Shown here piece after piece: positions 1 to 19,885 of a stretch of 64,000 nt of DNA. Under the pieces are notes generated by a model. The model ran no database searches and was not told where the DNA came from. It saw nothing but the letters and a program-made list of their open reading frames with translations. Source of the DNA: Lachnospiraceae bacterium (GTDB taxonomy: Bacteria > Bacillota > Clostridia > Lachnospirales > Lachnospiraceae); NCBI GenBank assembly GCA_017446045.1, contig JAFSRP010000049.1, positions 45,614 to 109,613 of the forward strand, read 5' to 3'. The stretch's first letter is position 1, and each line of letters starts with the position of its first letter. Both the position numbers and the translations under genes were made by a program.

Positions 1-265
1 CCTTGCCCACGATACCGCCCGCGGCTGCCAGGAGGCCGCCGTACAGACCGCCCTGGGCATAGGTGAGGAAGCTCAGGATCCAAAGGGGAAGCGGAAGCTC
101 CCAGAAATTGGACCCGACGATTCCAAGCACTAGCCATATGACGCCCAATACGATCGTCGGAAGCAGCTGTTTCGGATTTTTCAGGACGGCAAAACTCTGC
201 CGGAGATAGTCCCGCAGGTATGCTCCCAGTCCGGGATATGCAGTTGAACCATTATTCTGCTTCAT
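1..265 (-). CDS. N-terminal part of a paralogue of the 1,273-aa multi-domain membrane protein (runs off the window)
   Basis: The first 88 codons are in the window and the gene continues past position 1. The start is ATG at 265. The encoded residues are nearly the same as the N-terminus of the gene at 1316..5137, including the cytoplasmic-looking YPGLG and YLRDYLRQS stretches and the first hydrophobic segments. At DNA level, positions 1 to about 165 match 4876 to about 5040 with only a handful of differences, while the 5'-most codons diverge more and include one extra codon. This points to a recent tandem duplication or gene conversion. It is the most distal gene seen in the long minus-strand run, 67 bases after the preceding stop. 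Function unknown; multi-pass membrane location is inferred from the hydrophobic segments. Confidence 0.85.
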   Translation of the reverse strand, partial: MKQNNGSTAYPGLGAYLRDYLRQSFAVLKNPKQLLPTIVLGVIWLVLGIVGSNFWELPLPLWILSFLTYAQGGLYGGLLAAAGGIVGK

Positions 266-332
266 ATAGTCACCCTAAGCCCGTATCGGAATGTATTATG
301 AATCACTCCAATATTCCGGTTGATTTTTCTGC

Positions 333-1265
333 TTATGGTTTAAACGTAAACTCCGCCTCTTTCAGCAGCTGGCCGCTGACATTGTCATAGATCCGGCAGA
401 CGCCCGTCATCATATCCAGCGGCAGGACGTCTTCGAGCGGTTCCCATTCCAGCTCATAATAGAAACTGCCTTTGGATCCATTCTGGAACGTATATCCCTC
501 TCCCACTCCGCGTGTGTCGTAAACCGAACCGTCCACATTCTTGCGGGCGACTTCATATGCTTTCCCGTTGAACTTTACATCACCGGGAACGATACGGATG
601 TCCCTGCCGGATGTATTTTCCACGTAGAAGCGGAGCGCGCTGCTGGTATCGGTGTAAGCAACGGAAAGGTCTGCTGTGGCAAGACTGATGCCGTCCGCAT
701 TGTAAAACTCATTTGTTTTATACAGGAACTTCGGCGTATCTGCCTTCTTTGCCTTATTGGTCTTGATCGTGATCTTTCCGGAGCGTGCTGTTTCCGCCAT
801 GGAAGATGCATCATAAGCTGCCAGTTCCAGTTCGATCTCTCCCACGTAGATGATCTGCATATCGTAGAGACCGCTGCGGTCGAAAAGCAACACGCCGTCC
901 GTGGAGGCGCCCGGCGCAGCCTCGATCTTCAGTTCCGGCTGCACTGCTGCACCGCCGTTTGCGGATAATGCGGTACAGCGCAGGATCTTTGCACTGCTTC
1001 CATCATTCTTCACCTTGAGATAGAGAGCATCCCTCTCCTGGCTTCCGCTGGTATAACGTCCCGTACCTGTTACCGATACAGACAATCCGTCCGCGGACCA
1101 TATCTCCTGTGTTTTGATCTTCGCGCCGCCAAGCGGATCCCATCTTCCGTTATCGGAAGGAAATATCATGCGGTATGCTATAAATAGAATGATCGCAGCA
1201 AAGACCAGAAATCCCAGTCCAAGCCACAGAGCAGTCATAGGTCCCTTTTTTTCCTTCTGTGCCAT
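333..1265 (-). CDS. Membrane-anchored extracytoplasmic protein of unknown function
   Basis: Encodes 310 aa from an ATG preceded by GGAGG. The N-terminus is a short Lys-rich stretch followed by one hydrophobic segment at about residues 12-33, with no lipobox Cys. The rest is hydrophilic and beta-rich in appearance, so it is probably a signal-anchor protein facing the outside. The body seems to contain two related halves of the type found in extracellular Ig-like or DUF4352-like modules (residues about 50-160 and 180-305), but I cannot assign a family. It lies between the two copies of the large membrane protein (51 bases after the first, 67 before the second), which suggests it works with them. 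Function not recognised. Confidence 0.8.
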   Translation of the reverse strand: MAQKEKKGPMTALWLGLGFLVFAAIILFIAYRMIFPSDNGRWDPLGGAKIKTQEIWSADGLSVSVTGTGRYTSGSQERDALYLKVKNDGSSAKILRCTALSANGGAAVQPELKIEAAPGASTDGVLLFDRSGLYDMQIIYVGEIELELAAYDASSMAETARSGKITIKTNKAKKADTPKFLYKTNEFYNADGISLATADLSVAYTDTSSALRFYVENTSGRDIRIVPGDVKFNGKAYEVARKNVDGSVYDTRGVGEGYTFQNGSKGSFYYELEWEPLEDVLPLDMMTGVCRIYDNVSGQLLKEAEFTFKP

Positions 1266-1315
1266 CGTTCCTACCTCCGTAAATCACAGTAAATGGCCTC
1301 GTTTTTTCTCCGTTT

Positions 1316-4300
1316 TTAAAAATCCTGGCCTCGTTTGTATCTGCGGATCACTTCTCCGCTGTCGTTCAGGAAACCCTGCATCTCAGCCTTGGCAGTCTCT
1401 CCGATCAGCTCCGTCGCTTGTCCGGTCACATTTTTCTGGAATACGTCACTGAAAAGATTCGTAACAGCGCTGGTCCAGTTCTCTGTTTTTGTGATCTCCG
1501 CCGTCATCTTTTTGTAGTCCGAGATGCGCATCTTTGCCATGTTCTGGTTTGCTTTGTCCACGGACATGTTCTTCCAGCTGACGCCGTAATCTCCGTATGC
1601 ATCGATGTTTTTGCCGAGTTCCATTGACTTTCCGGCCGTCAACTTATCGGACGCCTTCTTGCCCGCACTGCTTATGAGCTGGCCGATACCGTAGTTCAGT
1701 GAGCTCTGGTATGCCGTCTGGGTGAGATCCGCCGTGATCTCATCCATGGACTTGCCATTTACCACTCCATCGAGACCGGTCTTGACCAGATCGCCGCCGA
1801 TCGCCATACCAAAGCCGTCGATCTCATTCTGCAGCACACCGATCGCGCCCTCAGCCGTACCCTGGGCGATCATCGTCATGGTTTCATAAACATCCTTTCC
1901 CTGCGCGCCGGCTTCCGCCAGTTTGGTCAGGCCGGGTTTAGCGAAGGTATAGATATTCTTGATCGTCTTGCCTGCAGGGCCGGTCACTTCGCCAAGGACA
2001 TTGATGGACGTATCCGCCACGCTTTCGATCTGGGAGGCAGTCTTCTCTCCGAACTCCAGCCAGGCATCCTTTGCCATCTGTTCCTGCTGCTCGGTCTCTG
2101 CCGCCACACGCTCCTTGATGATTTCTTTTTTGATTCCCTTCAGGTCATCGACGGATTTGCCGTACTTCTCCGCAAGTTTCTCGATGTACTGTTCCTTCGA
2201 CATCTGTTCCTGGTCACGTTTCCAGGCTTCTGACATCTCCGTCTTGCCGGTCACACGTTCCTGTTCCCACCTGGCCTGGTTCTGCGCGTGCTGCTCCTGC
2301 TGCCATCGCTGACCCGTCTCGTAATCCTGCCGGAGCGTACCCGCATTGCGCCCGCGGTCATCATAATTCTCACGGAGCGTGGACTCCCCGAAGGTAAAGC
2401 CGGACTTTTCACTCAGGTACTGCGGCTCTCCGGTCTCCGGATCGTAGCCCGTCAGGTAGTAAGTCATCCGTTCTCCGGTGGCAGGGTCCTTGTAGGTAAT
2501 GTCTCCCTCACTGTTCACTTTCCATCCCTTGGGAACAGGGTTGTCCCAGTGGTAAGGATCTTTTGGGGCGGTATCTCCCGGAACCTGACCATCCGGAATT
2601 CCGCCTCCGCCCTCGTAAGAAAGGTCTTCACCGGGACCACCTGGGAATCCGCCTGTGGCGCCTCCCACGGAACCTCCTATAGCTCCGCCGATCCCGCCGC
2701 CGAGCGTACCGCCGACGCCGCAGGCGAACAGAAGGCTGAAGACCCAGCCGATCAGGGTCCGCAGCGCGGAATCCATACCACCGACATGATGATCCCAGAG
2801 GTATTCATCATAATACCCGGCATGATGGCCATTATTCAGATCATAATAGCCCGGATCGGTGAAAACATTGGACGATGAATCGCCGCCGGAATAGGCTTCC
2901 GTCCAGGCGTCTCCTGCCCCCGCATCGGATCCGCTGTCATAATCAGCTTCCTCATCATCATACAGGCTTCCGAACATCGAACCGCCCATGCTGCCGGAAT
3001 TGCCGGAGCTTCCGGAATTGTCCGTACTGCCATTGCTGCCGGAGGAACCGCTTTCGGAAAGCTTGCCCGTATCCGGATCATATCCCGGCGCCCATTCCGG
3101 CTCAAACCACTCGACATATAACGGCATGGAAACTGCAACATTAAGGTATTCCTTAAGTTTTCTTTTGACGGCGCCAAGATCTTTTCCGCTGCCTTTTGCC
3201 AAACCAACATAGTAGCACAGGGGAATCTCCGGAAACTCTCGTACCATCACATATTTGGCTGTATTGCCATCATCTTTGTGATAAACCGGCACATCACCGA
3301 TCATGAATCTGTCTACTCCCTTCATGACCTGTGCAACTTCTTCATCAGTAATTTTGATATTCGCCGCTATGGATTCAGCTACCGCATAATTAATCGCATA
3401 TTTCCTGACTTCTTCAACGGATTTCCTGCCGCTCTTACTTTTGTAATAATTCGCATAGTATTCCCGTATCATGGATGCGGGCGGACGGATCGTCGCTGTT
3501 CCATCGCCCATTTTCACAGATTTTTCTCTGTTTTCTACGTTTTCAGGCCATCTGAGATAATACCAGCAGCTCTGGGACACGATTTTTTTACCGCTGTCTT
3601 TATTCTTTACAGTATAGGTAATCATGCCCTTTATATCGTTTGGTAAACATGTCTGCTCGGCCCAGGCTTTAAATGGTCCCTCCTTATCGCCCTTTCCATA
3701 TATATTGTCATCTGCGCTAACTTCATATAATTCATTATCCAAATACGGGCCCAGGTCGATTAATTGACCCCCGCCGGAACTTACATTTATGTAAACACTA
3801 TCAATCGTAAGTGAGACTGAGCAGTCAGCGTGAGCGTCCACTTCCATTGCGTGCGGATAAAGATTGCTCCAGACTTCATCAACATATACTTTGCAGTTTT
3901 CAAAGCTTTTCTGCTGTGATCCTGAGCTGTTCTGAGATGCATATCCCTGCCAGGTCACATCCACCTTCATCAGATCTTCGGATGAAGGATCTCCTGTGAA
4001 TGTCATGATCAACAGGGTTCCGTTCTGCCCTGCGGCATTTCCTCCGACAATTGTACGGTACTCAGTTTCTGCATTCTTTGTAAGATCAATAATAAGAGGG
4101 GTGGCTTCCGAAATAGCTACGGTCTTTTCGGGATCGTCTGTCCTGTAGCACATCGGTGTGACTTGTATTTGGGTTGGTTTATCTGTCCTTAGATGAGGAT
4201 AAAGCTCCGAGATGTCTTTTGCCGCATAGTACTCCCAGGGATCGACCCACTGCTCTGCGGCATATGCGGTAATGACATTTCCCATGATGACAGAACCCAT

Positions 4301-5137
4301 CAAAATACCGCTCACAAAGAGCATGGCAAGCAGATTCAGTTTTAATGCTTTCTGTCCTTTCTTAGGCTTAGCCATAGAAGCCTTTTTGTTCACGGGCTCT
4401 TTACCGCCTTTTCCAAAAAATGCAAGGACAATGCTGACAACGAACAGTACCAGACCCGTCCATACACAGGGCCTGAACGGCAGCAGCGTCAGTGCCACTG
4501 CCAGCGTGAACCCGATCGTAAGCCCCGTCAGGATCCTGTCCACGGTGATGCGGGAAGGTGTTCTGCCTCTGCTAAAAGTCTGTGCCGCACTGAAGAGGAG
4601 ACCCGTCATAAAGCCGCCCTTCGTGCCTATGTTTTTCAGCAGCATGATGATGGCCACGATACCCACCATCGCTTCCTGCATATCCTGCCGGCTGTTCATG
4701 AACCCGTAGAGAAGCAGGGCTGCTCCCGCGCCCCCTGTCAAGGGAGAGGCTTCCTTAAGCCCCTGTACTGCAGCACCCCTGAAAAGCCCGGTAATACCGC
4801 CAGCTACGCCCGAGAAAGGCTTCTTTCCCTGAAAGAGCGGAACGATCATCGCATTTAAGAAAGCTGCGATCACGACCTTGCCCACGATACCGCCTGCGGC
4901 TGCCAGGAGGCCGCCGTACAGGCCGCCCTGGGCATAGGTAAGGAAGCTCAGGATCCAAAGGGGAAGCGGAAGCTCCCAGAAATTGGACCCGACAATTCCA
5001 AGCACCAGCCATATGACGCCCAATACGATCGTCGGAAGCAGCTGTTTTGGGTTCTTCAACACAGAGAGGCTCTGCCGGAGATAGTCCCGTAAATATCTGC
5101 CAAGGCCCGGATATGCAGTTGTATCTTTCTGCTTCAT
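1316..5137 (-). CDS. Large multi-domain membrane protein, unknown function
   Basis: Encodes 1,273 aa. Residues 1 to about 290 contain roughly seven hydrophobic segments, and the last ends in an Ala-Tyr-Ala-Ala stretch resembling a signal-peptidase site. Residues about 293-690 form a hydrophilic, presumably extracellular region. A Ser/Gly/Asn linker covers about 690-730. A further hydrophobic segment near 790-815 runs into a glycine-zipper stretch to about 850. Residues about 930-1030 are rich in Gln, Glu and Lys and look coiled-coil. The last 240 residues are helical with GxxxG-like spacing. The layout, with a channel-like N-terminus, extracellular middle and long helical tail, vaguely recalls large secreted or contact-dependent proteins, but I see no toxin or secretion motif. 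A tandem paralogue begins at 265. Expression is probably from the operon promoter near 17.5 kb. Confidence 0.85.
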   Translation of the reverse strand: MKQKDTTAYPGLGRYLRDYLRQSLSVLKNPKQLLPTIVLGVIWLVLGIVGSNFWELPLPLWILSFLTYAQGGLYGGLLAAAGGIVGKVVIAAFLNAMIVPLFQGKKPFSGVAGGITGLFRGAAVQGLKEASPLTGGAGAALLLYGFMNSRQDMQEAMVGIVAIIMLLKNIGTKGGFMTGLLFSAAQTFSRGRTPSRITVDRILTGLTIGFTLAVALTLLPFRPCVWTGLVLFVVSIVLAFFGKGGKEPVNKKASMAKPKKGQKALKLNLLAMLFVSGILMGSVIMGNVITAYAAEQWVDPWEYYAAKDISELYPHLRTDKPTQIQVTPMCYRTDDPEKTVAISEATPLIIDLTKNAETEYRTIVGGNAAGQNGTLLIMTFTGDPSSEDLMKVDVTWQGYASQNSSGSQQKSFENCKVYVDEVWSNLYPHAMEVDAHADCSVSLTIDSVYINVSSGGGQLIDLGPYLDNELYEVSADDNIYGKGDKEGPFKAWAEQTCLPNDIKGMITYTVKNKDSGKKIVSQSCWYYLRWPENVENREKSVKMGDGTATIRPPASMIREYYANYYKSKSGRKSVEEVRKYAINYAVAESIAANIKITDEEVAQVMKGVDRFMIGDVPVYHKDDGNTAKYVMVREFPEIPLCYYVGLAKGSGKDLGAVKRKLKEYLNVAVSMPLYVEWFEPEWAPGYDPDTGKLSESGSSGSNGSTDNSGSSGNSGSMGGSMFGSLYDDEEADYDSGSDAGAGDAWTEAYSGGDSSSNVFTDPGYYDLNNGHHAGYYDEYLWDHHVGGMDSALRTLIGWVFSLLFACGVGGTLGGGIGGAIGGSVGGATGGFPGGPGEDLSYEGGGGIPDGQVPGDTAPKDPYHWDNPVPKGWKVNSEGDITYKDPATGERMTYYLTGYDPETGEPQYLSEKSGFTFGESTLRENYDDRGRNAGTLRQDYETGQRWQQEQHAQNQARWEQERVTGKTEMSEAWKRDQEQMSKEQYIEKLAEKYGKSVDDLKGIKKEIIKERVAAETEQQEQMAKDAWLEFGEKTASQIESVADTSINVLGEVTGPAGKTIKNIYTFAKPGLTKLAEAGAQGKDVYETMTMIAQGTAEGAIGVLQNEIDGFGMAIGGDLVKTGLDGVVNGKSMDEITADLTQTAYQSSLNYGIGQLISSAGKKASDKLTAGKSMELGKNIDAYGDYGVSWKNMSVDKANQNMAKMRISDYKKMTAEITKTENWTSAVTNLFSDVFQKNVTGQATELIGETAKAEMQGFLNDSGEVIRRYKRGQDF

Positions 5138-5219
5138 ATGTCCTCTTTTTTCTCACCATGGTAAATGCATGCGCTGCCATCACGGCGCGGGGATCATCTG
5201 TCCGGCAGGCTCAGCAGTC

Positions 5220-6512
5220 TTACTCGATCAGCGGGGTCCAGTAGTGGCGACCCTCATAGTCCGTCAGACGATAAGCCACGCTTGTGACAGTATCCTGTGC
5301 CAGGCGGATATTGGCGATCTCGACATCGGAACCGACGGTAAACGCCGGGCCGAGGAAATAGTTGTCAATGAAATCGCCGTCATAGGTATAGACATCGCAG
5401 ATCGGCTCCACGGTATCCCCGTCATTCAGCGGGATCAGACCGTCACACATCTCGTCCGCAGGCATGTCGCCGCCGGGGCCGTCGGTGATCACCTTGACAC
5501 CCAGGATCTGGCCCTTCGGATGTTTATTGTCAAAGCGCAGGATCAGGTTGGCGTGCTGTGCGTTGACAAAAGCCGGGATATAACCACGGGACCAGTACTG
5601 GCTTCCTTCATGCCAGCCGTCCAGCTGGTAGTAGGCGACCACGTGCTTGTCGAGCGAGGGCCATGTCCCGTCGTATTCGCCGATCAGATTGAGATCGTCA
5701 TCAAAGTCATAGAGGTTATCCAGGCCGAGGTCAATAAATGCCTCCCCCGTGTCTACAAAGACGTTGAGTTTGACATACTCGATAGCATCCCACTCCGCGT
5801 CTGTCAGATGCAGGACATGCTGTCCCCTCTTATTGGTGCTCCAGACGAACCTGGATTCGTCCAGCGGCTCGCCGGGGGTATATGCGTAGTTGTCCCCGCT
5901 CAAGCCCGCTGCTCCCGCGATCAGGCCCGCAGCACCGGAAAAGATCCCCGCCTGGTCAATGCTGGGGATATAGCCGCTCTCACCGGAAAGAGGGGCCAGC
6001 ATGCCGCTTGCATAACTGCGTGTCAGCAGTGTCTTCGCGGACTGGCTGATGGTAATGGCATCGCTTTCTCCCAAAGCAATGAGATTGCTGCTTCCCGAGC
6101 TGCCCGAGCCGGATCCGAGATTCTGGGCGACTTCCCTGAGGCCATCGATATCGATGTTCTGCGCAGCTTCCTTGAGGGCTTCCACACCTGTATCGATGCC
6201 CTCCTGGACACTGCCATCCTCGACTTTTTCCGAAGCAATATGAAATAGATCGGAAACGATCTGCAGCGCCTTGCTCGGACTGCCGCCTGATACAGCAAGC
6301 AGTACGACAATACAGACAATTGCCACCAGCGGCAGGCAGCCGAGACTGCATCCGCCTCCGCCGCCGCGGTCTCCGAGTCCCGGACGGTTTTTATACCCGC
6401 CGGAATTACCGACCGGCCCGCCTAAGCCCAGACCGCTGCCTCTTGTGGATACCCTGGCCGATCCTTTGGTCGTATTACGCTGCCGGCTTCCGCCTCCTCC
6501 TGTTCTGTCCAT
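5220..6512 (-). CDS. Gly/Arg-rich membrane-anchored extracytoplasmic protein
   Basis: Encodes 430 aa from an ATG with AGGAGG seven to eight bases upstream. The first 55 residues are a low-complexity, positively charged Gly/Arg/Ser tail ending in a Gly-Gly-Gly-Cys stretch. One strong membrane segment follows at about 58-76, and then a long exterior region. The exterior part includes an acidic beta-rich segment (residues about 230-430) with many Asp, Tyr and Trp residues, compatible with a binding domain. The sequence between about 80 and 200 is Ser/Gly/Ala-rich. I do not recognise a family. It sits between the zinc-ribbon gene at 6544..9762 (31 bases away) and the large membrane protein (82 bases away), so it is presumably part of the same surface assembly. 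Confidence 0.8.
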   Translation of the reverse strand: MDRTGGGGSRQRNTTKGSARVSTRGSGLGLGGPVGNSGGYKNRPGLGDRGGGGGCSLGCLPLVAIVCIVVLLAVSGGSPSKALQIVSDLFHIASEKVEDGSVQEGIDTGVEALKEAAQNIDIDGLREVAQNLGSGSGSSGSSNLIALGESDAITISQSAKTLLTRSYASGMLAPLSGESGYIPSIDQAGIFSGAAGLIAGAAGLSGDNYAYTPGEPLDESRFVWSTNKRGQHVLHLTDAEWDAIEYVKLNVFVDTGEAFIDLGLDNLYDFDDDLNLIGEYDGTWPSLDKHVVAYYQLDGWHEGSQYWSRGYIPAFVNAQHANLILRFDNKHPKGQILGVKVITDGPGGDMPADEMCDGLIPLNDGDTVEPICDVYTYDGDFIDNYFLGPAFTVGSDVEIANIRLAQDTVTSVAYRLTDYEGRHYWTPLIE

Positions 6513-6543
6513 AAATACCTCCTGATGGATCTTATAAATCCCG

Positions 6544-9500: not shown

Positions 9501-9762
9501 CGGCATATTGGCCGGCAGCAGTTTCTTGTGCAGCAGTCACAGGACCTCTCCCACCCGTACCGGAAGATGGCCCAACTTTCCATCCGCACTCCCTGCAAAA
9601 CTTAGCACCGGGACTCAACGGCTTTCCACAGCTGCGGCAGAACTTTGGTGTATTCACTTCGATCTTTTGCGGTCCTTCCTTAGGAACACTCTTTCCGCAG
9701 CCACTGCAGAAAGCTGCACCCTCCGGAATCTCCGAACCGCAGTTACGGCAAAACCTGGGCAT
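6544..9762 (-). CDS. Double zinc-ribbon membrane protein with large extracellular region
   Basis: Encodes 1,072 aa from an ATG with GGGAGGG upstream. Two zinc ribbons lie at the N-terminus: Cys5, 8, 19, 22 and Cys42, 45, 56, 59. A Ser/Gly linker and one membrane segment follow (about residues 100-122, ending in the Tyr-Pro-Gly-Tyr-Val-Arg-Thr-Lys-Leu motif shared with 11812..15258). Everything after it should be extracellular. Residues about 170-360 are beta-rich and end in an HFTDVTEL stretch like those closing bacterial adhesin/ZU5-like modules. The middle (about 380-750) is mainly helical. The last ~200 residues, from a DIYGTWE motif, form a domain shared with the C-terminus of the next upstream gene. 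Zinc binding by the ribbons is family knowledge; the overall role is unknown. Confidence 0.85.
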   Translation of the reverse strand: MPRFCRNCGSEIPEGAAFCSGCGKSVPKEGPQKIEVNTPKFCRSCGKPLSPGAKFCRECGWKVGPSSGTGGRGPVTAAQETAAGQYAGSEGGKTRKRASFKPVIAVVTALAVFVCFVYPGYVRTKLFPGGTAHITETEGTGNGSGGTGIGSGNTGANPVSSGSGTPVYDGPKAELVIPASEYSLTGGADQIVLNQDNSPGAVALLSVRYDTKETSNAPEQKAEITTETGQASFDVAGGKLEVEIFPWNLENETDELIIRELPVKTDPESGQELVTYDISLASGQHTFQTSNMIRIPRTAAPDQDGSVIWFDEEQGRWQPAPFEYSEDGTCYEVYLDHFTDVTELKGDKNAAYYLGQEKDTPFIYNYVKGLPPEMQPIKVTASSLAGYLDTKKDLSHFLYDGVGDAALPGMVADLYGMDTALDAAMGLTNEGLGLPYNAKLVSTRLGNRYFGKDAAGGKLSAIGLTLVMGKVLSQYWHGGSFKDALDNNAKDLIAASLQTMGEYAPKIINWAMRSKIFKPLASIGTKWGGALLTRLGWGTAAAAVPVLGKALVVIGTVVAVWSVTDYILGKFPPETPFDLPQMAYREYLIYPRTVRGYENLSIQYTKGFNDAIISIVNNSDPARPDQMMEEIAVLYDDFFNGFFNLSFQEQAGWYEKIFYRYTANSDRAISTKEVPYTGISESKKKEYIELYSAYLHKTTDIVLQRKIRDDYEKMKANLLSYLQTELVPAMNARLEFLAIDEAIAAKTREDKHMTFDKSRYSRYKTGKSLDEYASEMKIRFFTEDEDTGERKFITMPLFLPADGAWEDYSAKRFQPYPRENSDLIYECTAYHFLQIGFPDGVLFVGDNTPAMPDIPVKFSMPTPNRDGSYMIVLKLANEDIYGTWEIESAMKDFHMPMFDGLVSLQGQIMGNLGGQAPQEAVEQAQNYANQYYQAENQVAQSVAKGKMIIRPTDHESLVDVSVKFEGEAPLQEYDGSYNKQTMELILSPKETLYSFTGASEERNAENNAYHQKIESGTYDLRDFGLVPGIELKFSVGTDTEHRAMTFTGESALDNEYVTYTSVLSGTKISDEY

Positions 9763-9780
9763 TCAGATCCCTCCCGATCA

Positions 9781-11808
9781 TTATCGTACCATCGCGACCT
9801 CACCGATCTCCTTCTCGCCGTTATAGACAGTGCCGAGGGCATACTGCATACCGCCGGCTTCCACAAAGTCGTAGACCATCATATTCAGGCTGCTTGTCTC
9901 ACTGGTGACATCAAAATATCCCGGATCGTCATCCCAGTCACCGTTCATGACGATGTTGTCCGGCACATTCAGCTTTTTGGACTCTATACTGCCGGGATCA
10001 CTGACCATGAACTCGTGTGTTTCCGTCGGATGCAGAAGGACGGTCACCTTATATCCCATGTACTGGACTTCCGCATCGCAGACCATGATCCGGCACTGGT
10101 CCTCCCCATCGACCGGGGTCACTACATTAAGGATGCCCTTCCACTTGCCGCCGAGATCCTGCAGTTCCGTGAGCGGTCTGCCGTCGATCGGGAATTCATC
10201 GTTAAAGTACCAGTTAAAGTCATCCAGGCTTACTTCTCCGGATGCCGCAGCGTTGCTGCCGCTGCTGCCATCGGACTGCTGCGTCTGCGTTACAGCCTCT
10301 GTTGCGCCTCCGGGTATACCCGCAGGGAGATCGCTGCTTTCTGTTGTAATATTGGCTGATGCACTTCCTGTCGGCTGAAGGCTGACGGGAACAGGCACAT
10401 CCGAAGTACCCGGCATCACCGTCAGTGAGGGTCTGCTTCCGTCCATGATCCAGATCTTTTCTCCATCCGGACGGACGAGTGCCATCATGTACTCTTCCTT
10501 ATTCTCGTTTACATATCTGCCACGGCCGATTGCAGCATCCTGTGTATACTCAAAGCTGAAGCTTGCAAACGGATAACTGCTGTCCTCATTTTCCATGCGG
10601 TTGTAATAGAATTCCTCATGGGTACACACGGCGTCGGAAAGTCCGCTTTCATCTATGACATTCCCTTCTCCGTCAATACCCAGATACCAGTCGATCCGAA
10701 CATCGACGTAACCTTTTTCATACTCATCCTCAGGCTGGTAATTGTCTACATACAGGTTGCAAAGATGTGCTTCAAACCCTCTGCCGGCTGTCCGGGCATC
10801 CCGGAAGATATAACACTTCCAGCCACCAAGATACTCCCTTGCGTCATATTCCGGATCACGATAATCACCCACGGTTCTGTCCGCAAATACCGAGGGGCTG
10901 GTATACCAGGCAAAATCCTCCAGGGTCGGCTGTTCGGAAGTATCGAGAAGTTTTTGGATCTCCATCCCTTCCATGTTCTCGAAGGTATGGTTCTCGTGCT
11001 TTTCCTGTACGTTTAACCGGAAAGCTGCATTATGCGGCTGGGAGAACTGGTCCGTCAGCCAACAGGCGATCACGACCTCGCGGGTCTCCTCCGGCACCTG
11101 ATATAGCAGCCAACGGTCCAGTTCCCCACCATTGTAGGGCTCCGCTGAACAATAGTATTGGTCTGCATCCGAGCGGATCTCGGATACCGGCATATCCGTC
11201 ACCGGACGGAGCATGCTGTCGGTACCGCCCGCAGCGCTTAAGTCCACGAGATTGCCATATTCATCCTTCGCCTCGATAAGATAGTAATGTTCCGGCGCAG
11301 GAAGTTCCTTTACCATACCGGCATCGTAATCGGTAAGCTCCAGTTCAACGGATATGTATTTCATGCCGTCAGAGAGCCCGGTTTTGGAATCGATCCAGTC
11401 GGAAGCTTCCTCCGCACTGATATATAACTCTGTTCCGTCCATCTGGATCATGCTGCCGGCGTCATAGATTGCATTCGGATCCGCCAGGGAAACGATGCCG
11501 TCGGGCATGTCGACCCCGTACTGGGATGCAAATGCCTGTGCCGCCTGTCCCATGGAATCGGAACCGCCCGCACTGCCGGCACCGGTATTTGTCGAACCGG
11601 AACCGGAAGCAGAAATTCCGCTGCCGGAGCCGGCAGTGCCCGGGGCATCGTTCGATACTGCGGTACTTTCGGAACCGGAACCACCGGATCCATTGCCGCC
11701 GGATGCAGCTTCCTTGCCCCCGCAGGCTGCCAGAATGATGACCAATGCGAAGACCGGCAATACAGCTGCAACTGTCCAGACCCTATCAGATAATGTATGC
11801 TTTTTCAT
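9781..11808 (-). CDS. Lipoprotein with two copies of a cluster-specific domain
   Basis: Encodes 675 aa. A type-II signal peptide ends in the lipobox Leu-Ala-Ala-Cys, with Cys29 the predicted lipidated residue. A Gly/Ser-rich spacer leads to an exterior region with a DUF4352-like ligand-domain look at about 100-270. Two related modules follow: about 285-450, starting with a TLEDFAWY motif and containing GGWK, and about 520-675, starting with SLDDFNWY and ending in AMVR. The same module occurs at the C-terminus of the gene at 15349..16575. The start codon follows the stop of 11812..15258 by four bases and its ribosome-binding site lies within that gene's last codons, so the two are translationally coupled. 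It is probably anchored on the outer face of the membrane beside the zinc-ribbon proteins. Confidence 0.85.
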   Translation of the reverse strand: MKKHTLSDRVWTVAAVLPVFALVIILAACGGKEAASGGNGSGGSGSESTAVSNDAPGTAGSGSGISASGSGSTNTGAGSAGGSDSMGQAAQAFASQYGVDMPDGIVSLADPNAIYDAGSMIQMDGTELYISAEEASDWIDSKTGLSDGMKYISVELELTDYDAGMVKELPAPEHYYLIEAKDEYGNLVDLSAAGGTDSMLRPVTDMPVSEIRSDADQYYCSAEPYNGGELDRWLLYQVPEETREVVIACWLTDQFSQPHNAAFRLNVQEKHENHTFENMEGMEIQKLLDTSEQPTLEDFAWYTSPSVFADRTVGDYRDPEYDAREYLGGWKCYIFRDARTAGRGFEAHLCNLYVDNYQPEDEYEKGYVDVRIDWYLGIDGEGNVIDESGLSDAVCTHEEFYYNRMENEDSSYPFASFSFEYTQDAAIGRGRYVNENKEEYMMALVRPDGEKIWIMDGSRPSLTVMPGTSDVPVPVSLQPTGSASANITTESSDLPAGIPGGATEAVTQTQQSDGSSGSNAAASGEVSLDDFNWYFNDEFPIDGRPLTELQDLGGKWKGILNVVTPVDGEDQCRIMVCDAEVQYMGYKVTVLLHPTETHEFMVSDPGSIESKKLNVPDNIVMNGDWDDDPGYFDVTSETSSLNMMVYDFVEAGGMQYALGTVYNGEKEIGEVAMVR

Positions 11809-11811
11809 GAC

Positions 11812-14800
11812 TTAGTTTCCTCCCAATGATGTCGTCTCGTCCGAGATCTTGGTACCTCTCAGGTCGGCTTTCATTTTTACAAACTGGTTGTCCAGCTCTG
11901 TCATACCGGCAAAGGTCAGAACAGGATGCTTTGGATCGTTCGGATCAGTCTCCTTTGAGATCAGAAGCTCCATACCTGCAGCCAGTCCAAAGTCTGCCAG
12001 GTTATAAGTCCCGCTTTCGATCTTCTGATGGTAGGCATTGTTCTCCGCGTTCCTTTCTTTCGAAGCGCCTTCAAATGCATAGTCCGTATTCGTCGGGTTC
12101 AGAGTAAGCCTCATGGTCGTCTTGTCGAAGGGACCCTCAAAAGTCTGTACCGGTCCCTCTTCATACTTCACGGCAGCCGCTACCAGGCCATCCTTCGTTC
12201 CGGGGCGCAGGACCATCGTCCCCCTGCTCACCTGCTTCGCATACTGACCCTCGATTTGGAAATACTGGTTGACATAATTTTGTTCCTGCTCGAGCGCCTC
12301 CTGACTGGCCTGGCCGCCGAGGCTTCCTATGATCTGCCCCTGCTGCTGTACGAGGCCGTCCAGCATAGGCATGTTGAACTCCTGCATAGCGGCTTCAACC
12401 TCCCATGTGCCGTAGATATCAGGTTCGATCTCGGACCAGGGACCGTAAACATATTCGTCTCCAATACAGATATACTCTCTCACTTGGGCATGGAAAACCG
12501 GTTCTTCCCCGCTGTAGCCGCCCGTGAAATCGCCGGTATCCAAGGTGATCTTTTTCTCCCAATCCTCTACGGGATATAGCTCCTCGATCTCAAACTCCTC
12601 TTCGTCGTCACGCACGATCTTAAGTTCAAGGCCGATGTCCATTTCCTTCAGATAATACTCTTCATTGCGGGCATCCCTGGCCAATTGGTCCGGGTAACCC
12701 CTCAAGGTCACATAAAGCAATTCTTTATCCACGTTGACCTCCGGCTCCGCAGGCTTGAGGAGCAGGTAGGTATAGACGCCGTTTTCACCGAGCCCGATGT
12801 CCTTAAGATCGTAAAGCTGCGTGTAATCCAGCGTCCTGAACGGTTTCTCATCATGGTAAAGCACTTCGCCGGCTTTTATGATACCTGCGATTGACAGATC
12901 TGCCGACTTATTCTGCTCCTCCTTCTTTAAGACAGACGCCATGGGCCGGGGCCGGTATTCGTGAAGGAAATCCGATTTATCCTCAGGCGTATAAGGCACC
13001 GTCAGGATCCCGTAACTGTCCACACCCTCGTCGCTGCGATGGATCCGGTGTGTTCTGAGGAAAGGATAATTGATGTCAGGCGAAGACGCCGGCTCAGAAT
13101 ACTTTGAGACCGGTTTTTTCGGGTCAAGATCCGGAAGATCAAGGATGTCGCAGAGCTTTGTGTCCGTCACCGAATATTTATCGATCGGGATCCGGTTCTC
13201 CCGCATCCAGCGCAGGAATTTCTCGCAGGCCCTGGGGTACAGAAAATCAGAGATCCCATAGGCTTTCTTGATGGTTTTCGAAAATGACTGGAAGGCCTGA
13301 TAATTCAGCATGATCCAGTTTGTGCTATGCCATTTATAGTACTTGTTCAGGTATTCGATGAAATAGCCGAGAAGATAACCGGAATCCTGCAGATGGTCGG
13401 AAGGATTCTGGTCAAAATCCCAGGCCAGGTACTCTTCCCACTTCCTGCCGGCGGCGTAGGTAAGAAAAGTCTCCCAGTCTTCCGGCTTATCAAGATCCAG
13501 ACCACCGATGACCTTGAAATAGCCTTTCTCATTCATGTAGCGGTATGCGTCTGGTTCCATAGCTGCGGCGACCGCCTCAAACAGACGGACGTTCGAACCC
13601 CGTCCGATGACTTCCCCAGTGTAATACTCATGCTGGCAGGCATGCAGGATTTCATGCGCAAGCGTGAGCGGCAGCGTATCCTGATTGATTGCGCTCTGAT
13701 CGCCTACGTTTGACTGAAAGATCACGCCGAGGGACACGACGATATAGGGATTGCGCATATAGACCACCTTCTGTTCGGCGTCTGCGCCTGTATTCAGTGC
13801 CTGCAGATAGATATTAATGGTATATGAGTGCATCCTGACCTTGTAAATGGGTGAATTCAGGAACTCATACGCATAACGGGCGGACTGGGCGACCTGTTCG
13901 ATGATATCCGGAAAGATCTTCTTGGCTCTCAGATTACTTTCCAGGGTTTGAACTACAGTGTCAGTCTTTACTGTTTCACAGAAATTTGTCAGCACCTGGC
14001 GGTTCCGTTCCGCCACAGCCTCATCATAAGTCCGACCCTTGGCATCTTTTCCGTTTTCATATTCATCCGGGTTAGGCCTGGGAAATCTATGATTTGCCTT
14101 TTTAAGCAGCTTGAGCTTTTCTTCTTTCAGTTCTTCGTAGGTCGCATCTACTGCTCCCAGTTCGTCCTTCGCCCAGATAATGTTGAATTTGTCGCCTTCT
14201 TTATGATAACTGCCTGTTTCCTTTCCCTTATAGTATCGTTCGATTTCCGTCGCATTATAGTAAAGCGTGTAAGCAGTATAGCCCAACGTGATCACGATGG
14301 CTGCGACACCTTCGATGCTGTTCTGGCGGGACTTATAGGAAAGCACACCATCGGTGACTTCGGAGGCATATTCATAGTATTCTCCGTTTTCATCGATCCT
14401 GAACGCTACCATTGAATCATACATTTCCTCCGGCACACCCAGTGTACTTAAGTCGACACTGACATTGTAATAACCCGGAAGGTACTCGTCTGCCTTCAGT
14501 CCCGCATCCAGGTCAAACGCCATCAGCAGCGCGCCATTTTTCTCCTCCAGTGTTTCGCTGACGCTGTCGAGTTCTCTTCCGGATAAACGGCTGACCTTGA
14601 ATTCCCGGTCATAGTCCAGGGCATTCTCCTCTGCGGAGATCTGAAGACCCTGCCACGGATTCAGCTCAAAAGCTTTGGAATTTCCGACTATCGTCGGGAC
14701 CTCTTCCACTTCCTCGAGGGTGATCCCCTCCAGTTCATCGCTGATACCGGAACCGTTTGAGCCGTTCTGCCCGTTCCCTCCGGTATTGCCGCCATTGCTT

Positions 14801-15258
14801 CCGCTCCCGGTATTCCCGCCGGAAACGGCATGGGTCTCCGGTCCGCCAAAGAGTTTTGTCCGAACAAAGCCCGGATAGACGAAACAAACAAAGACTGCCG
14901 CTGCAGTGACCAGGGCGATCAGGGGCTTCAAAGAGCGCGGCAGGGAAGCCGTCTTCTGCGGACGGCTCCCTTGTGGTGCATTCTGTGTATATTGCTGAGT
15001 TCCGGTGTGCGGAGCCTGCTGTCCTCCCGGAGCCGGCGCTGCCTGCTGTGCCTGCTGCACTGCTATCCCCACCTTCCAGCCGCAGGAACGACAGAATTTC
15101 GCGCCGGGGGCCAGCGCTTTGCCGCAGGACCGGCAAAACTTCGGCTGCTGTGTGCCTGACTTTGGAGGCTCAATTTTCGGTACGGCTTTACCGCAGCCTT
15201 CACAGAAAGCCGCATTTTCCCGCAGTTCTGTTCCGCAGTATCTACAAAATCTGGCCAT
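11812..15258 (-). CDS. Double zinc-ribbon membrane protein with HExxH metallopeptidase-like region
   Basis: Encodes 1,148 aa. I chose ATG 15258 over the upstream in-frame 15333 because it has a GGGAGG site at good spacing and the protein then begins directly with the zinc ribbon. Two ribbons (Cys5/8/19/22 and Cys42/45/56/59) precede a membrane segment at about 115-135. The presumed extracellular region contains HEILH near residue 536 followed by a Phe-Glu-Ala-Val stretch about 20 residues later that could give the third Glu ligand of a gluzincin. The last ~200 residues, from DIYGTWE, match the C-terminal domain of 6544..9762. The peptidase activity is inferred from the motif and its helical surroundings, not proven. 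Four bases separate it from the lipoprotein gene. Confidence 0.85.
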   Translation of the reverse strand: MARFCRYCGTELRENAAFCEGCGKAVPKIEPPKSGTQQPKFCRSCGKALAPGAKFCRSCGWKVGIAVQQAQQAAPAPGGQQAPHTGTQQYTQNAPQGSRPQKTASLPRSLKPLIALVTAAAVFVCFVYPGFVRTKLFGGPETHAVSGGNTGSGSNGGNTGGNGQNGSNGSGISDELEGITLEEVEEVPTIVGNSKAFELNPWQGLQISAEENALDYDREFKVSRLSGRELDSVSETLEEKNGALLMAFDLDAGLKADEYLPGYYNVSVDLSTLGVPEEMYDSMVAFRIDENGEYYEYASEVTDGVLSYKSRQNSIEGVAAIVITLGYTAYTLYYNATEIERYYKGKETGSYHKEGDKFNIIWAKDELGAVDATYEELKEEKLKLLKKANHRFPRPNPDEYENGKDAKGRTYDEAVAERNRQVLTNFCETVKTDTVVQTLESNLRAKKIFPDIIEQVAQSARYAYEFLNSPIYKVRMHSYTINIYLQALNTGADAEQKVVYMRNPYIVVSLGVIFQSNVGDQSAINQDTLPLTLAHEILHACQHEYYTGEVIGRGSNVRLFEAVAAAMEPDAYRYMNEKGYFKVIGGLDLDKPEDWETFLTYAAGRKWEEYLAWDFDQNPSDHLQDSGYLLGYFIEYLNKYYKWHSTNWIMLNYQAFQSFSKTIKKAYGISDFLYPRACEKFLRWMRENRIPIDKYSVTDTKLCDILDLPDLDPKKPVSKYSEPASSPDINYPFLRTHRIHRSDEGVDSYGILTVPYTPEDKSDFLHEYRPRPMASVLKKEEQNKSADLSIAGIIKAGEVLYHDEKPFRTLDYTQLYDLKDIGLGENGVYTYLLLKPAEPEVNVDKELLYVTLRGYPDQLARDARNEEYYLKEMDIGLELKIVRDDEEEFEIEELYPVEDWEKKITLDTGDFTGGYSGEEPVFHAQVREYICIGDEYVYGPWSEIEPDIYGTWEVEAAMQEFNMPMLDGLVQQQGQIIGSLGGQASQEALEQEQNYVNQYFQIEGQYAKQVSRGTMVLRPGTKDGLVAAAVKYEEGPVQTFEGPFDKTTMRLTLNPTNTDYAFEGASKERNAENNAYHQKIESGTYNLADFGLAAGMELLISKETDPNDPKHPVLTFAGMTELDNQFVKMKADLRGTKISDETTSLGGN

Positions 15259-15297
15259 ACCTGTCCTCCCAACGATCACCGCATCATCATCGAAATC

Positions 15298-15331
15298 GGG
15301 CAGCCCGGGCTTTCGAAGTCCCGGTCTGCCC
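15298..15331 (-). other. Intercistronic hairpin
   Basis: Inverted repeat with arms GGGCAGcCCGGG and CCCGGtCTGCCC around a ten-base spacer, between the stop at 15349 and the next start at 15258. There is no T tract, so it is more likely an mRNA processing or stability element than a terminator. It is the only clear hairpin inside the long operon. Confidence 0.6.
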
Positions 15332-15348
15332 ACTGCTGTTGATAAGCT

Positions 15349-16575
15349 TTACTTTGCACTACGCATCAGGGCGATGCTGTCCTTTTCACCCGAGATCCAG
15401 GTGAATGTACCGACGGCGTACTCTGTCTGTCCATCCTTTGAGAGGTAGAAAGCGTCAAAGTCGATCTTTGAGTCATCCGTCATGGCTGTCGCTGTTCCCT
15501 CAAGGTCATCATACGTGCCCCGATAGACACTGCTGCCTTTCTCTTCTATCGTCTCCCCGTTCGGCTCGACAAGGTATTTCCAGTTCAGGGTGATATTGAA
15601 CTTACCGCCGGCCGCATCGATATTTGCATTGAGATAGCGCTCGACATCAGAACCGTAGACGCCCTTCTTCGTACAGATGAATGCCTTCCAACCACCGTTC
15701 AGCGCTTCCTGCAGGTCTGTCATCCTGGTCGCGCGGTTCGGATCAGTAATGACCTGGGCGTTGCCGTATCCGGTCTCGTTGACGTAGTCGAGGAACCAGT
15801 CAAACTCCGTCGCATAGGCAGGCTCATCAGTAGAGAGCTTTTTGGCGATCGCTGCCATTGCATCGCCCGTGGGTGTCCCCGCAACAGAGGATGTCGCGCC
15901 GCCGGATTTATTCTGCGGGGCATTCGGATCATAGCTGCCGTCCGCGCCCACATAGTAGCCGTCCGGTGTATAGGCATTGCTGATCATATATCCCGTTTCA
16001 TCCACGTAGTAATAGACACCGTTGTCATTGATCCAGCTGTTCTTGACCAGATCTCCGTCCTTCTCGTAGAACCATACGCTGGCGATCTGGATCCATTTAC
16101 CGCCGGTGACAGTAGGAATGCCCGAATTCGTACCCGCAGCGGAGGGTGAGCTCCCGTTCTTCTCATTCTTCTTTGCCAGGGCTTCTGCCTTCTTGCCGAG
16201 GGCAGCGGTACTCGTGCTGCCGCCAGTCTCGCTGCCGGTGCTCTGTCCGGTGCTGCCCAGGCTCCCGCTCGCAGTGCCGATATCCTCGGCTTCAGTCTCT
16301 GTCTGCTGGGTAGCCGGCACCTGTTCGTAAGCTTCTGTCTGTGTCTCGAGATAGTCTTCGGTCAGTTTATGGACCAGGAAGTCTCCTTCGATTTTGATCT
16401 CCGCATCAGCCATGCTCATGGTCATCGCGAAATCGCCGGCGATCATTTTGTCATCTCCGTTCACACAGTACGCTCCGATGTGGTCCATCTTGACATGTCC
16501 GCCTCCGGACTTCTCATCTTCGAAAGATTTGTCGATCTTGGCATGATACATACCGTTCGAGGTGGTCGTGATCAT
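15349..16575 (-). CDS. C-terminal part of a frameshifted zinc-ribbon surface protein; cell-wall-binding-like repeats plus cluster-specific domain
   Basis: This 408-aa frame starts at an ATG overlapping the TGA of the upstream frame (TGATG), but no ribosome-binding site precedes it. Coding-like sequence extends upstream of the ATG in this frame through a GFDSDDYDDPEEF stretch, so it is probably the continuation of 16575..17468 after a lost base. Residues 1 to about 75 complete a beta domain begun in the upstream frame. A Ser/Thr/Gly linker follows. Residues about 150-215 contain Trp/Tyr/Gly repeats like choline/glucan-type cell-wall-binding repeats. The last 170 residues are the FDWF...GGWK...ALMR module found twice in the lipoprotein 9781..11808. 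Location outside the cell is inferred. Confidence 0.75.
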   Translation of the reverse strand: MITTTSNGMYHAKIDKSFEDEKSGGGHVKMDHIGAYCVNGDDKMIAGDFAMTMSMADAEIKIEGDFLVHKLTEDYLETQTEAYEQVPATQQTETEAEDIGTASGSLGSTGQSTGSETGGSTSTAALGKKAEALAKKNEKNGSSPSAAGTNSGIPTVTGGKWIQIASVWFYEKDGDLVKNSWINDNGVYYYVDETGYMISNAYTPDGYYVGADGSYDPNAPQNKSGGATSSVAGTPTGDAMAAIAKKLSTDEPAYATEFDWFLDYVNETGYGNAQVITDPNRATRMTDLQEALNGGWKAFICTKKGVYGSDVERYLNANIDAAGGKFNITLNWKYLVEPNGETIEEKGSSVYRGTYDDLEGTATAMTDDSKIDFDAFYLSKDGQTEYAVGTFTWISGEKDSIALMRSAK

Positions 16576-17468
16576 CAGCGCGTCGATCTCAGCAGGCGTA
16601 AACTCCTCCGGATCATCGTAGTCATCAGAATCAAATCCATGATGCCGACAAGTGAAAAGATAATGTCCCAGCCTCCATCCTCTTCGATTCTCAGATTACA
16701 GTTCCTCGGCGTACTCAGCGCCTCTTTCTTGATCTCCGGGAAATTATCCGGCACGTTGGGTATGTCCTCATAGCCTTCGATCACAGTCATCTGGATCTCG
16801 CCCTTGTAGTCACCGATCAGGTCGGTCAGCATAGCATCTGTCTTGATCTGGGCTCCTTCGGGGACCTTGATCTTGGAGAGATCACCTGTCGTCACACCGC
16901 CGCTGATCGCGTTCATCCCCTGCTCAAGGAGAGCTGCCTGCTCTGCCGCAGTCAGACCCCCCTGGGTGCCGACAGCTCCGGCAGTGCCGGAGTCGGATGA
17001 TCCGTCCGAAGTACCGTCCGTGCTTTGGCTGACGGAACCACCGGATGTACCGCCGGCTGCCATCGTAGTCTCTGCCTGGATCGTAGTGCTTTCCGCTTCG
17101 GTGCCCGGCTCTTTCTTGCCTCCGCGCAGCGCAAACACAGCTGCGACCGCAGCCAGTGCCACTACACCGCCGATCAGGGCGATCTTCGGAAAACCGCCGC
17201 CGGGACGGGACGGACCGGAAGGCGCAGCAGGAGCCGGTTTTCCTGTATTTCCTGTAAACGCAGGACCCGAAGGATTATCCTGATAGACAGGCGCTGGTGA
17301 AGGCGGTATGTTCTGTGCAGGTTCCGGTCTATATTCCGGTTGCCCCGGTCCTTCTGCATATCCCTGTCCTTCCGCCATTCCCAAAGGCAACACCTTTGCA
17401 CCGCAGGCTTCACAAAATTTCGCGTCGTCGGGGAGCGGAGCTCCGCAATTCTCACAAAACTGACTCAT
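16575..17468 (-). CDS. N-terminal part of a frameshifted zinc-ribbon membrane protein
   Basis: This 297-aa frame begins at ATG 17468 with a strong AAGGAGG site. One zinc ribbon (Cys5, 8, 19, 22) is followed by a Pro/Gln-rich cytoplasmic linker, a membrane segment at about 98-120, and a Ser/Thr/Gly-rich exterior linker. A folded domain starts with LIGDYKGEIQM at about 215. The last ~25 residues (Met/Leu/Arg-rich) look like out-of-frame translation. Adding one A to the four-A run at 16655-16658 joins this frame to the next and restores an acidic, sensible sequence. It is the first gene of the 17-kb minus-strand run, so its promoter probably drives the whole cluster. It may be a true mutation or a sequencing error. 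Confidence 0.8.
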   Translation of the reverse strand: MSQFCENCGAPLPDDAKFCEACGAKVLPLGMAEGQGYAEGPGQPEYRPEPAQNIPPSPAPVYQDNPSGPAFTGNTGKPAPAAPSGPSRPGGGFPKIALIGGVVALAAVAAVFALRGGKKEPGTEAESTTIQAETTMAAGGTSGGSVSQSTDGTSDGSSDSGTAGAVGTQGGLTAAEQAALLEQGMNAISGGVTTGDLSKIKVPEGAQIKTDAMLTDLIGDYKGEIQMTVIEGYEDIPNVPDNFPEIKKEALSTPRNCNLRIEEDGGWDIIFSLVGIMDLILMTTMIRRSLRLLRSTR

Positions 17469-19851: not shown

Positions 19852-19871
19852 CAGGGACTCCTTTCCCACTC

Positions 19872-19885
19872 TCAAAACGTTTCAA
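19872..19885 (-). promoter_or_regulatory. Candidate ArsR operator upstream of the arsR-like gene
   Basis: TCAAAACGTTTCAA is palindromic at 12 of 14 positions and lies 21 bp upstream of the start codon. It resembles the TTGAA...TTCAA operator at 22359-22378, which supports autoregulation. Confidence 0.5.

What the first reader, a model, noticed from the sequence alone, without database searches (positions are those of the whole stretch)
1..17468. A probable 17-kb operon for an undescribed zinc-ribbon cell-surface assembly
Seen: eight or more minus-strand genes with gaps of 4-90 bp. Three encode proteins starting with zinc ribbons (one, two and two), each followed by a single membrane segment and a long extracellular-looking region. 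The others are a lipoprotein, a Gly-rich membrane protein, a signal-anchor protein and two copies of a large multi-pass protein. Recurrent private domains link the members. Inference: a cytoplasmic zinc-ribbon platform is coupled through the membrane to an outer complex, perhaps for adhesion, surface proteolysis or signalling. I know of no described system with this composition.
Basis: partly seen in the sequence, partly recalled or inferred. Interest (0 to 1): 0.85.

Follow-up and report, generated by a model that had tools for sequence, protein, structure and literature searches.

The report
Mobile surface proteins with swappable heads
A bacterium carries a large gene cluster, found patchily in distant bacteria, that seems to build a membrane-spanning surface complex on zinc-binding inner anchors whose outer parts are exchanged like interchangeable heads; what it recognises or does is not known.

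Summary
Nine minus-strand ORFs fill window 2-17468, and the cluster continues 5.3 kb past the window start with two more zinc-ribbon genes. Apart from zinc ribbons and a choline-binding-type repeat, no Pfam or NCBIfam model reached its cut-off in the eight window proteins scanned. The multi-pass domain ("MPN") was found in 34 further loci. In nearly all it is fused to, or next to, a large protein with signal peptide, ectodomain, membrane segment and tail. Satellite families recur: small C-terminal zinc-ribbon proteins, ZR-TM proteins, lipoproteins, regulators.

The new result is ectodomain exchange. In two loci with 98% identical MPN and 86% identical tails, DNA matches at 97% up to the partner's first codons and at 88% from its membrane segment, with nothing detectable between. 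Twelve loci with MPN 57-98% identical carry five unrelated ectodomain classes. The window's two double-zinc-ribbon proteins show the same pattern: similar ends, unrelated middles (one with HExxH). The three loci whose flanks I scanned for it lie near relaxase or recombinase genes.

Best reading: a mobile, modular surface recognition complex. The anatomy is well supported; the function is inferred.

The parts
16575..17468 (-). ZR1: one N-terminal zinc ribbon, one membrane segment, start of an outer domain (297 aa); first gene of the cluster
   Evidence: PF13240 E 2.8e-9; sequence
15349..16575 (-). ORF with an F8 domain (GGWK...QYAVGT) and a choline-binding-type repeat; no signal peptide of its own; perhaps the continuation of ZR1 in another frame
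   Evidence: PF19085 E 1.3e-8; grouped with the other F8 proteins by BLASTP; overlapping frames
11812..15258 (-). F6-type protein (1148 aa): two zinc ribbons, membrane segment, ectodomain with HExxH at residue 535, C-terminal region shared with 6544-9762
   Evidence: ends shared with 6544-9762, middle not
9781..11808 (-). Lipoprotein (675 aa) with an F8 domain and a divergent second copy
   Evidence: BLASTP group; second copy E 2.7e-17 with a profile that contains this protein; the two copies give only E 0.034 directly
6544..9762 (-). F6-type protein (1072 aa): two zinc ribbons, membrane segment, ectodomain without HExxH
5220..6512 (-). GLY430: Gly-rich N-terminus, membrane segment, outer domain
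   Evidence: 417-aa homologue in L042, E 2e-179
1316..5137 (-). MPN-partner copy 1 (1273 aa): MPN bundle about 1-250, signal-like segment about 267-285, ectodomain to about 790, membrane segment about 791-809, tail to the end
333..1265 (-). SA310: signal-anchor protein with outer domain (310 aa)
   Evidence: 301-aa homologue in L042, E 9e-68
1..265 (-). N-terminus of MPN-partner copy 2 (1370 aa), which continues left of the window to contig position 41766; followed there by a 164-aa protein with a C-terminal zinc ribbon (contig 41257-41751) and a 303-aa zinc-ribbon membrane protein (contig 40289-41200)
17921..19480 (+). REG: divergent 519-aa gene, conserved and also divergent beside the L042 cluster; probable regulator
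   Evidence: L042 homologue E 4e-111; helix-turn-helix only at E 0.078, below cut-off

Best explanation
A horizontally mobile, modular surface recognition complex. Anatomy (shown by sequence): MPN, a membrane bundle often with a zinc ribbon in front, is translationally coupled or fused to a partner made of a signal peptide, an exchangeable ectodomain, a membrane segment and a largely conserved tail. Small proteins with C-terminal zinc ribbons, ZR-TM proteins that also carry exchangeable ectodomains, and lipoproteins are encoded around this core. Mechanism (inferred): MPN and the tail form a constant socket in the membrane and cytoplasm; the zinc ribbons dock the members to each other or to the small ZR protein; the outer domains bind a partner outside (another cell, a phage or a wall polymer), and binding is relayed through tail and ribbons or brings tethered surface activities to bear (HExxH here, transglutaminase-like in L042). 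Selection to recognise many partners, or to avoid being recognised, would explain why outer domains are replaced as cassettes while the socket is kept.
For: Core linkage: of 34 loci with a called MPN gene, 5 are fused and 27 have a same-strand neighbour within 250 bp; in 24 of these 27 it is a signal-peptide protein over 400 aa, and 20 of 27 overlap by exactly 4 bp. Exchange: L049/L050 have MPN 98% identical, tail 86%, ectodomain 25% in a forced alignment and no BLASTP hit; blastn 96.9% to nt 956 (partner starts at 945), 87.7% from 1820, nothing between; four other cross-class pairs show such a gap, two same-class pairs do not. Twelve loci with MPN 57-98% identical hold five ectodomain classes. 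A second exchanged protein: ZR-bearing F6 is 26% identical between L047 and L050 while F8 is 81% and ZRRC 85%; the DNA match stops after the zinc ribbon and resumes at the next gene. In the window the two F6 proteins share residues 1-143 (55%) and 947-1141 (58%), with no hit between. Mobility: relaxase or recombinase genes near L047, L049, L050; rare, scattered distribution.
Against: No ligand, partner or phenotype is known. No N-terminal ectodomain among the 20 partner proteins scanned reached a Pfam cut-off. Other outer proteins in the same loci are conserved rather than exchanged (F8, ZRRC). That the tail is cytoplasmic rests on reading a signal peptide plus one membrane segment; in L059 RHS repeats, which are usually exported, sit in that position. 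Ectodomain classes were set by BLASTP and could merge by structure. Not every copy is near transfer genes (L048 by reading).
Confidence: 0.45

Rival explanations
1. A polymorphic-toxin-like antagonism system: MPN is a membrane conduit or anchor (as PrsW is proposed to be in some Gram-positive toxins), and the large partner carries stalk and effector.
For: In L059 the partner slot directly after MPN holds DUF6531 plus RHS repeats (E 1.9e-10 and 6.1e-30, above cut-off), typical of polymorphic toxins (PMC3482391, passages). L057 has another repeat array there (Tcp10_C). L060/L067 and L061/L062 share two further C-terminal regions. Mobile neighbours. Outer domains include HExxH and transglutaminase-like ones.
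Against: No toxin domain reached its cut-off in the proteins scanned; I recognised no immunity gene, though not all small genes were scanned; PADLOC gave only JetC E 8e-4 and ZorG E 0.026 in 10 proteins. The part that varies fastest is the N-terminal ectodomain, not the C-terminus. In 32 MPN rows no Asp, Glu or His is conserved at 75%, unlike a PrsW-type peptidase.
Confidence: 0.2
2. An envelope-stress or cell-wall surveillance system of the TcaA/YdjG kind, sensing the wall and signalling inwards through zinc ribbons.
For: Extracellular domains joined through the membrane to zinc ribbons are known and read as sensors (PMC3924330, passages); B. subtilis ydjFGHL has zinc ribbons (PMC11237479, passages). 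Regulators flank many of the clusters. One window ORF has a choline-binding-type repeat.
Against: A sensor of a constant wall should not need exchanged ectodomains; MPN and tail are rare (5 of 295; 3 of 246), unlike housekeeping stress systems; no PspA, PspC or Toastrack match in the proteins scanned.
Confidence: 0.2
3. A surface platform for attachment and local proteolysis of host or food polymers.
For: HExxH in the 1148-aa protein and in the partner protein of L070, a choline-binding-type repeat, a transglutaminase-like domain in L042, many secreted domains together.
Against: HExxH is in 1 of the 10 F6 proteins, two of them cut short; apart from the repeat I saw no carbohydrate-binding or polymer-degrading domain above cut-off. 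The record titles include gut MAGs of deer and sheep but also Sedimentibacter, Syntrophomonas and an archaeon, so no single host type stands out.
Confidence: 0.1
4. A loose gathering of fast-evolving surface genes on mobile DNA without a joint function.
For: Satellite families come and go; L077 has the satellites without MPN and partner.
Against: MPN-partner pairing is near constant, mostly with 4-bp overlaps; F8-F6 order is kept.
Confidence: 0.05

Closest known systems
Zinc-ribbon/TM/ectodomain proteins such as TcaA and YvbJ (recalled) and B. subtilis YdjG in ydjFGHL (PMC11237479, passages)
   Same: Zinc ribbon(s) on one side of the membrane, an outer or NTF2-like domain attached
   Different: As described there, single or few genes; no MPN and no exchanged ectodomains (recall and passages, not a survey)
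Polymorphic toxin systems, PrsW- and RHS-type (PMC3482391, passages)
   Same: Modular exchange, a multi-pass N-terminal part in some, RHS repeats in one locus here (L059)
   Different: There the C-terminal toxin varies and immunity genes are known; here the N-terminal ectodomain varies most and no toxin or immunity domain was found
PSP / Lia / Toastrack envelope systems (PMC11237479, passages)
   Same: Zinc ribbons, multi-TM proteins and regulators in one neighbourhood
   Different: No PspA, PspC or Toastrack match in the proteins scanned
Clustered cell-surface complexes of Lactobacillus plantarum and others (PMC1534035, search listing only)
   Same: Clustered genes for a putative surface complex
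   Different: The listing counts no mention of 'zinc ribbon' in that paper

Membership tests
PrsW-dependent polymorphic toxins | Multi-pass part is a PrsW peptidase with conserved catalytic residues | tested here: not met
   No PrsW match in the three MPN-bearing proteins scanned against Pfam (window 1316-5137, L067, L064); among D, E, H, C, K, R only K28 and K87 reach 75% in 32 MPN rows
Polymorphic toxins in general | C-terminal toxin domain | tested here: not met
   No toxin family above cut-off in 20 of the 33 partner proteins; an unknown toxin domain remains possible
Polymorphic toxins in general | RHS or other stalk repeats | tested here: inconclusive
   RHS in 1 of the 20 partner proteins scanned (L059), another repeat in L057; not in the window
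Polymorphic toxins in general | Adjacent immunity gene | tested here: inconclusive
   None recognised; not all small genes were scanned
ZU5 autoprocessing surface proteins | C-terminal CxH motif of the ZU5 domain (PMC3482391, passage) | tested here: not met
   8 of 10 F6 proteins have an H[FLMIY][ST] motif at the end of a WE-type stretch; by reading none shows CxH there; no Pfam ZU5 match in the 7 F6 proteins scanned
TcaA/YvbJ-like proteins | N-terminal zinc ribbon, TM, outer domain | tested here: met
   Three window proteins
TcaA/YvbJ-like proteins | TcaA outer domains (Pfam) | tested here: not met
   No TcaA match in the window proteins; only a sub-threshold TcaA_3rd_4th match in L076:1830-3050 on contig C58 (E 5e-4)
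PSP-type envelope stress systems | PspA, PspC or Toastrack component | tested here: not met
   None among the proteins scanned
Anti-phage defence systems (PADLOC) | Known defence component | tested here: not met
   10 proteins; only JetC E 8e-4 and ZorG E 0.026

The most novel reading that the evidence does not exclude
A new class of contact-dependent recognition or antagonism machinery of Gram-positive bacteria: a zinc-ribbon-based inner platform and MPN socket display exchangeable heads, spread on conjugative elements, so that neighbouring cells are told apart by which heads they carry.
Probability: 0.25. Interest if true: 0.9.

Novelty: new variant of a known kind. Interest (0 to 1): 0.7.

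Why it matters
Membrane proteins with zinc ribbons are common in Bacillota and mostly unexplained (recalled; ribbon-type matches were also frequent). Here several of them sit in one recurrent, apparently mobile gene set whose outer parts are swapped as cassettes. That gives a concrete system in which the role of such ribbons, and the selection on surface heads, can be tested. If it is a recognition or antagonism system, it would be a new one in anaerobic bacteria.

Tried and rejected
A weak profile match of the partner protein to the pore former lysenin (E 0.04) vanished when one ectodomain class alone was used. A tape-measure match (phrog_339, E 3.5e-7) covers the coiled-coil and Gly-rich tail of L047; the window's protein has no match, so I read it as composition. 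A resemblance of the long C-terminal zinc-ribbon proteins (L060, L062, L063, L067) to T7SS chaperones was my recollection; Pfam shows none at E 5. PrsW and ZU5 identities were rejected. PurL, VacA, MtrF, SMC and JetC matches are below cut-off or weak. MPN searches of phage and plasmid records and viral contigs gave no confirmed match. Literature: searches listed no paper that describes such a cluster; only open-licence PMC papers are held.

Limits. Gene calls are from a simple script, not a trained gene finder. The 34 loci were found through one peptide pattern, so they are a sample of the family, and many contigs are cut short. One search left out the partners of L044, L052 and L071 (truncated), L058 (absent) and second partner-like genes of L041 and L063; its 22 ectodomain classes are an upper bound, since several ectodomains are short and several loci are distant. 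Profiles contain the window's own sequences, so their matches to the window are not evidence. In the rows listed, most matches (80 of 295 genomes; 182 of 295; 66 of 299) are zinc ribbons only; I count MPN itself in 5 of 299 including the window's genome, plus one weak.
Full report
WHAT IS THERE. The window is contig C24:45614-109613 of a 2.26-Mb, 79% complete genome. Nine minus-strand ORFs lie between 2 and 17468 with spacings of -1 to 90 bp. Three encode N-terminal zinc ribbons (one, two, two; PF13240 above cut-off). The last ORF runs off the window; fetched DNA shows it to be 1370 aa, followed by a 164-aa protein with a C-terminal zinc ribbon and a 303-aa zinc-ribbon membrane protein. The cluster is therefore about 22.8 kb, contig 40289-63081. 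A divergent 519-aa gene (window 17921-19480) flanks it. In the eight window proteins scanned, only zinc-ribbon models (including a 4-Cys prefix model of NCBIfam at 24.3 bits against 24) and the choline-binding-type repeat in ORF 15349-16575 reached their cut-offs. PADLOC gave nothing of note. Consensus promoters are at chance level (17 against 15.9); terminator-like sites exceed shuffles (27 against 16.0, sd 4.4), on both strands, so co-transcription is not shown.

THE CORE AND ITS RELATIVES. The first ~250 residues of the two multi-pass proteins (MPN) are 92% identical. In the order, 5 of 295 genomes including the window's own had a match; the other four are in other families. A scan of 84,980 species genomes by one peptide pattern gave 34 loci: two MAGs labelled Lachnospiraceae at 74-75% identity, then Syntrophomonas, Sedimentibacter, Anaerotignum, Oscillospiraceae, Clostridiales and others, and single MAGs labelled Anaerolineaceae, Acholeplasmataceae and Methanocorpusculaceae (an archaeon) at 51, 31 and 28%. 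MAG labels can be wrong. Of 34 loci with a called MPN gene (window included; L060 was not called), 5 are fused to the partner and 27 have a same-strand neighbour within 250 bp; in 24 of the 27 it is a signal-peptide protein over 400 aa, and 20 of the 27 overlap by exactly 4 bp. The rest: L044 (partner cut by the contig end), L068 (994-aa partner, signal below my threshold), L054 and L070 (partner lies before MPN), L058 (contig ends). MPN carries an N-terminal zinc ribbon by pattern in 19 of 34; a same-strand gene with a C-terminal zinc ribbon lies nearby in 12 of 34, contig ends limiting the count.

SATELLITES. Clustering of the proteins of 37 loci with ribbons masked and family profiles gave recurrent families: LuxR-type regulators with a membrane half (14 loci; GerE E 1.2e-17 in L047), a 170-aa membrane protein (14), ZR-TM proteins ZRRC (9), the small C-terminal ZR protein (7), F6 (7), F7 lipoproteins (6; DUF4352 in L047) and F8 (5). 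An F8 gene directly precedes an F6 gene in L047, L050, L054, L076, L077 and, twice, the window. L042 resembles the window most: divergent REG homologue, GLY430, partner protein, small ZR protein, MPN, partner, SA310, lipoprotein, 303-aa-type ZR protein, and a ZR-TM-transglutaminase-like protein. L064 has a reduced set of three genes: a ZR-TM protein whose end aligns with F8 by reading (the F8 profile did not report it), MPN-partner, small ZR protein. The window's genome has two more partial sets, on C35 (tail profile E 1.1e-33) and C58 (F8 plus F6).

EXCHANGED ECTODOMAINS. The partner reads as signal peptide, ectodomain, membrane segment, tail. L049 and L050 have MPN 98% identical and tails 86% identical, but ectodomains at 25% in a forced alignment with no BLASTP hit. 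By blastn they match at 96.9% to nt 956, just after the partner's start codon at 945, and at 87.7% from nt 1820, at the membrane segment; nothing matches between. Four other cross-class pairs show such a gap; two same-class pairs, L043/L050 and L045/L050, do not. Twelve loci whose MPN are 57-98% identical to each other (L043, L045-L051, L053-L056) hold five ectodomain classes. Over 33 partner proteins, including distant ones, with boundaries set from hydrophobicity, ectodomains fall into 22 single-linkage BLASTP classes at E 1e-3 and tails into 4: 22 members, 9 members, a repeat array (L057) and an RHS array (L059). The 22 is an upper bound. Within the window's genome the two copies keep MPN at 88-98% per 60-residue block, ectodomains at 22-53%, tails at 35-70% (last 13 residues 15%). 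A second protein is also exchanged: ZR-bearing F6 is 26% identical between L047 and L050 while F8 is 81% and ZRRC 85%; only the zinc ribbon, a 15-residue stretch and a weak C-terminal region match, and the DNA match stops after the ribbon and resumes at the next gene. Not all neighbours are constant: F7 lipoproteins also vary (22-83%). The window's two F6 proteins have similar first 143 residues (55%) and C-terminal ~195 residues (58%) and no detectable similarity in the ~800 residues between; one middle has HExxH. That middle has matches in 4 other genomes of 295 (best E 2.6e-11) and none of note in the PDB. Calling it a gluzincin-type peptidase would be recall; only the motif is shown.

MOBILITY. 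I scanned flanking genes of three loci for transfer genes. L047: MobL relaxase, conjugative coupling protein, TraG-type ATPase, M23 peptidase, two serine recombinases. L050: MobL relaxase and coupling protein. L049: serine recombinase and relaxase. L048 lies among housekeeping-looking genes (by reading), and I saw no transfer gene near the window's cluster by reading gene starts, so not all copies are on such elements. The tail profile was found in 3 of 246 genomes of the order including the window's own. With the patchy spread this points to horizontal transfer.

MECHANISM. Shown: near-constant coupling of MPN and partner; constant ends and exchanged outer parts in two gene families; many zinc ribbons, cytoplasmic by prediction. 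Inferred: that the products form one complex, that ribbons are the docking parts, that ectodomains bind something variable. I prefer recognition because cassette exchange of outer domains is what selection for, or against, recognition would leave. The strongest rival is toxin-like antagonism: L059 carries DUF6531 and RHS repeats in the partner slot, and C-terminal regions vary in L057, L060-L062 and L067. Against it: no toxin or immunity domain found, and MPN lacks conserved acidic or histidine residues.

COMPARISON. Outer domains joined to zinc ribbons are described as likely sensors (PMC3924330, passages); B. subtilis ydjFGHL and some PspC relatives carry zinc ribbons (PMC11237479, passages). 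Polymorphic toxins with PrsW, ZU5 or RHS are described in PMC3482391 (passages). I found none with the composition seen here, and at least one defining feature of each was not met. Eight literature searches listed no description of the cluster; subscription papers were not searchable. I call it a new variant of modular surface systems, not a member of a known family.

A CAUTION ON GENES 1-2. ORFs 16575-17468 and 15349-16575 overlap in different frames; the second frame is open about 40 codons upstream of its ATG. The second ORF has no export signal of its own, whereas the other F8 proteins have a signal or membrane segment (reading). They may be one gene interrupted in this assembly or strain, or two coupled genes; this is not resolved.

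CHANGES AFTER RE-CHECK.

Noticed in passing
window 16575-16700: ZR1 and the F8 ORF overlap in different frames; perhaps one interrupted gene or an assembly error.
   Followed up: partly
L059:3299-5149: DUF6531 plus RHS repeats occupy the partner slot directly after MPN (4-bp overlap); the contig ends inside the array.
   Followed up: partly
L067:3267-8216: An alpha-2-macroglobulin-like protein (A2M, A2M_BRD) lies directly before the fused MPN-partner gene.
   Followed up: partly
L075 (G000:C35) 5314-9342: Second locus in the window's genome: 866-aa membrane protein with a related tail, with a stretch matching the small ZR protein before it and a 215-aa protein that looks similar by reading after it.
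   Followed up: partly
L076 (G000:C58) 3510-7764: F8-F6 gene pair without MPN in the window's genome.
   Followed up: partly
L077 (G038) 1612-14349: Regulator, 170-aa protein and satellites (F6, F7, F8, ZRRC, small ZR) without MPN and partner.
   Followed up: partly
L042:12995-14191: Zinc ribbon, membrane segment and transglutaminase-like core (PF01841 E 5.8e-14) in the cluster most like the window's.
   Followed up: partly
L069: MPN and partner in a MAG labelled Methanocorpusculaceae archaeon; cross-domain transfer or mis-binning.
   Followed up: no
window 19537-21903: ArsR-like regulator (by reading) and P-type ATPase (PF00122) next to the cluster.
   Followed up: no
L004:2395-4431: CoxE-type VWA protein and AAA ATPase pair, about 10 kb left of the cluster.
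   Followed up: no
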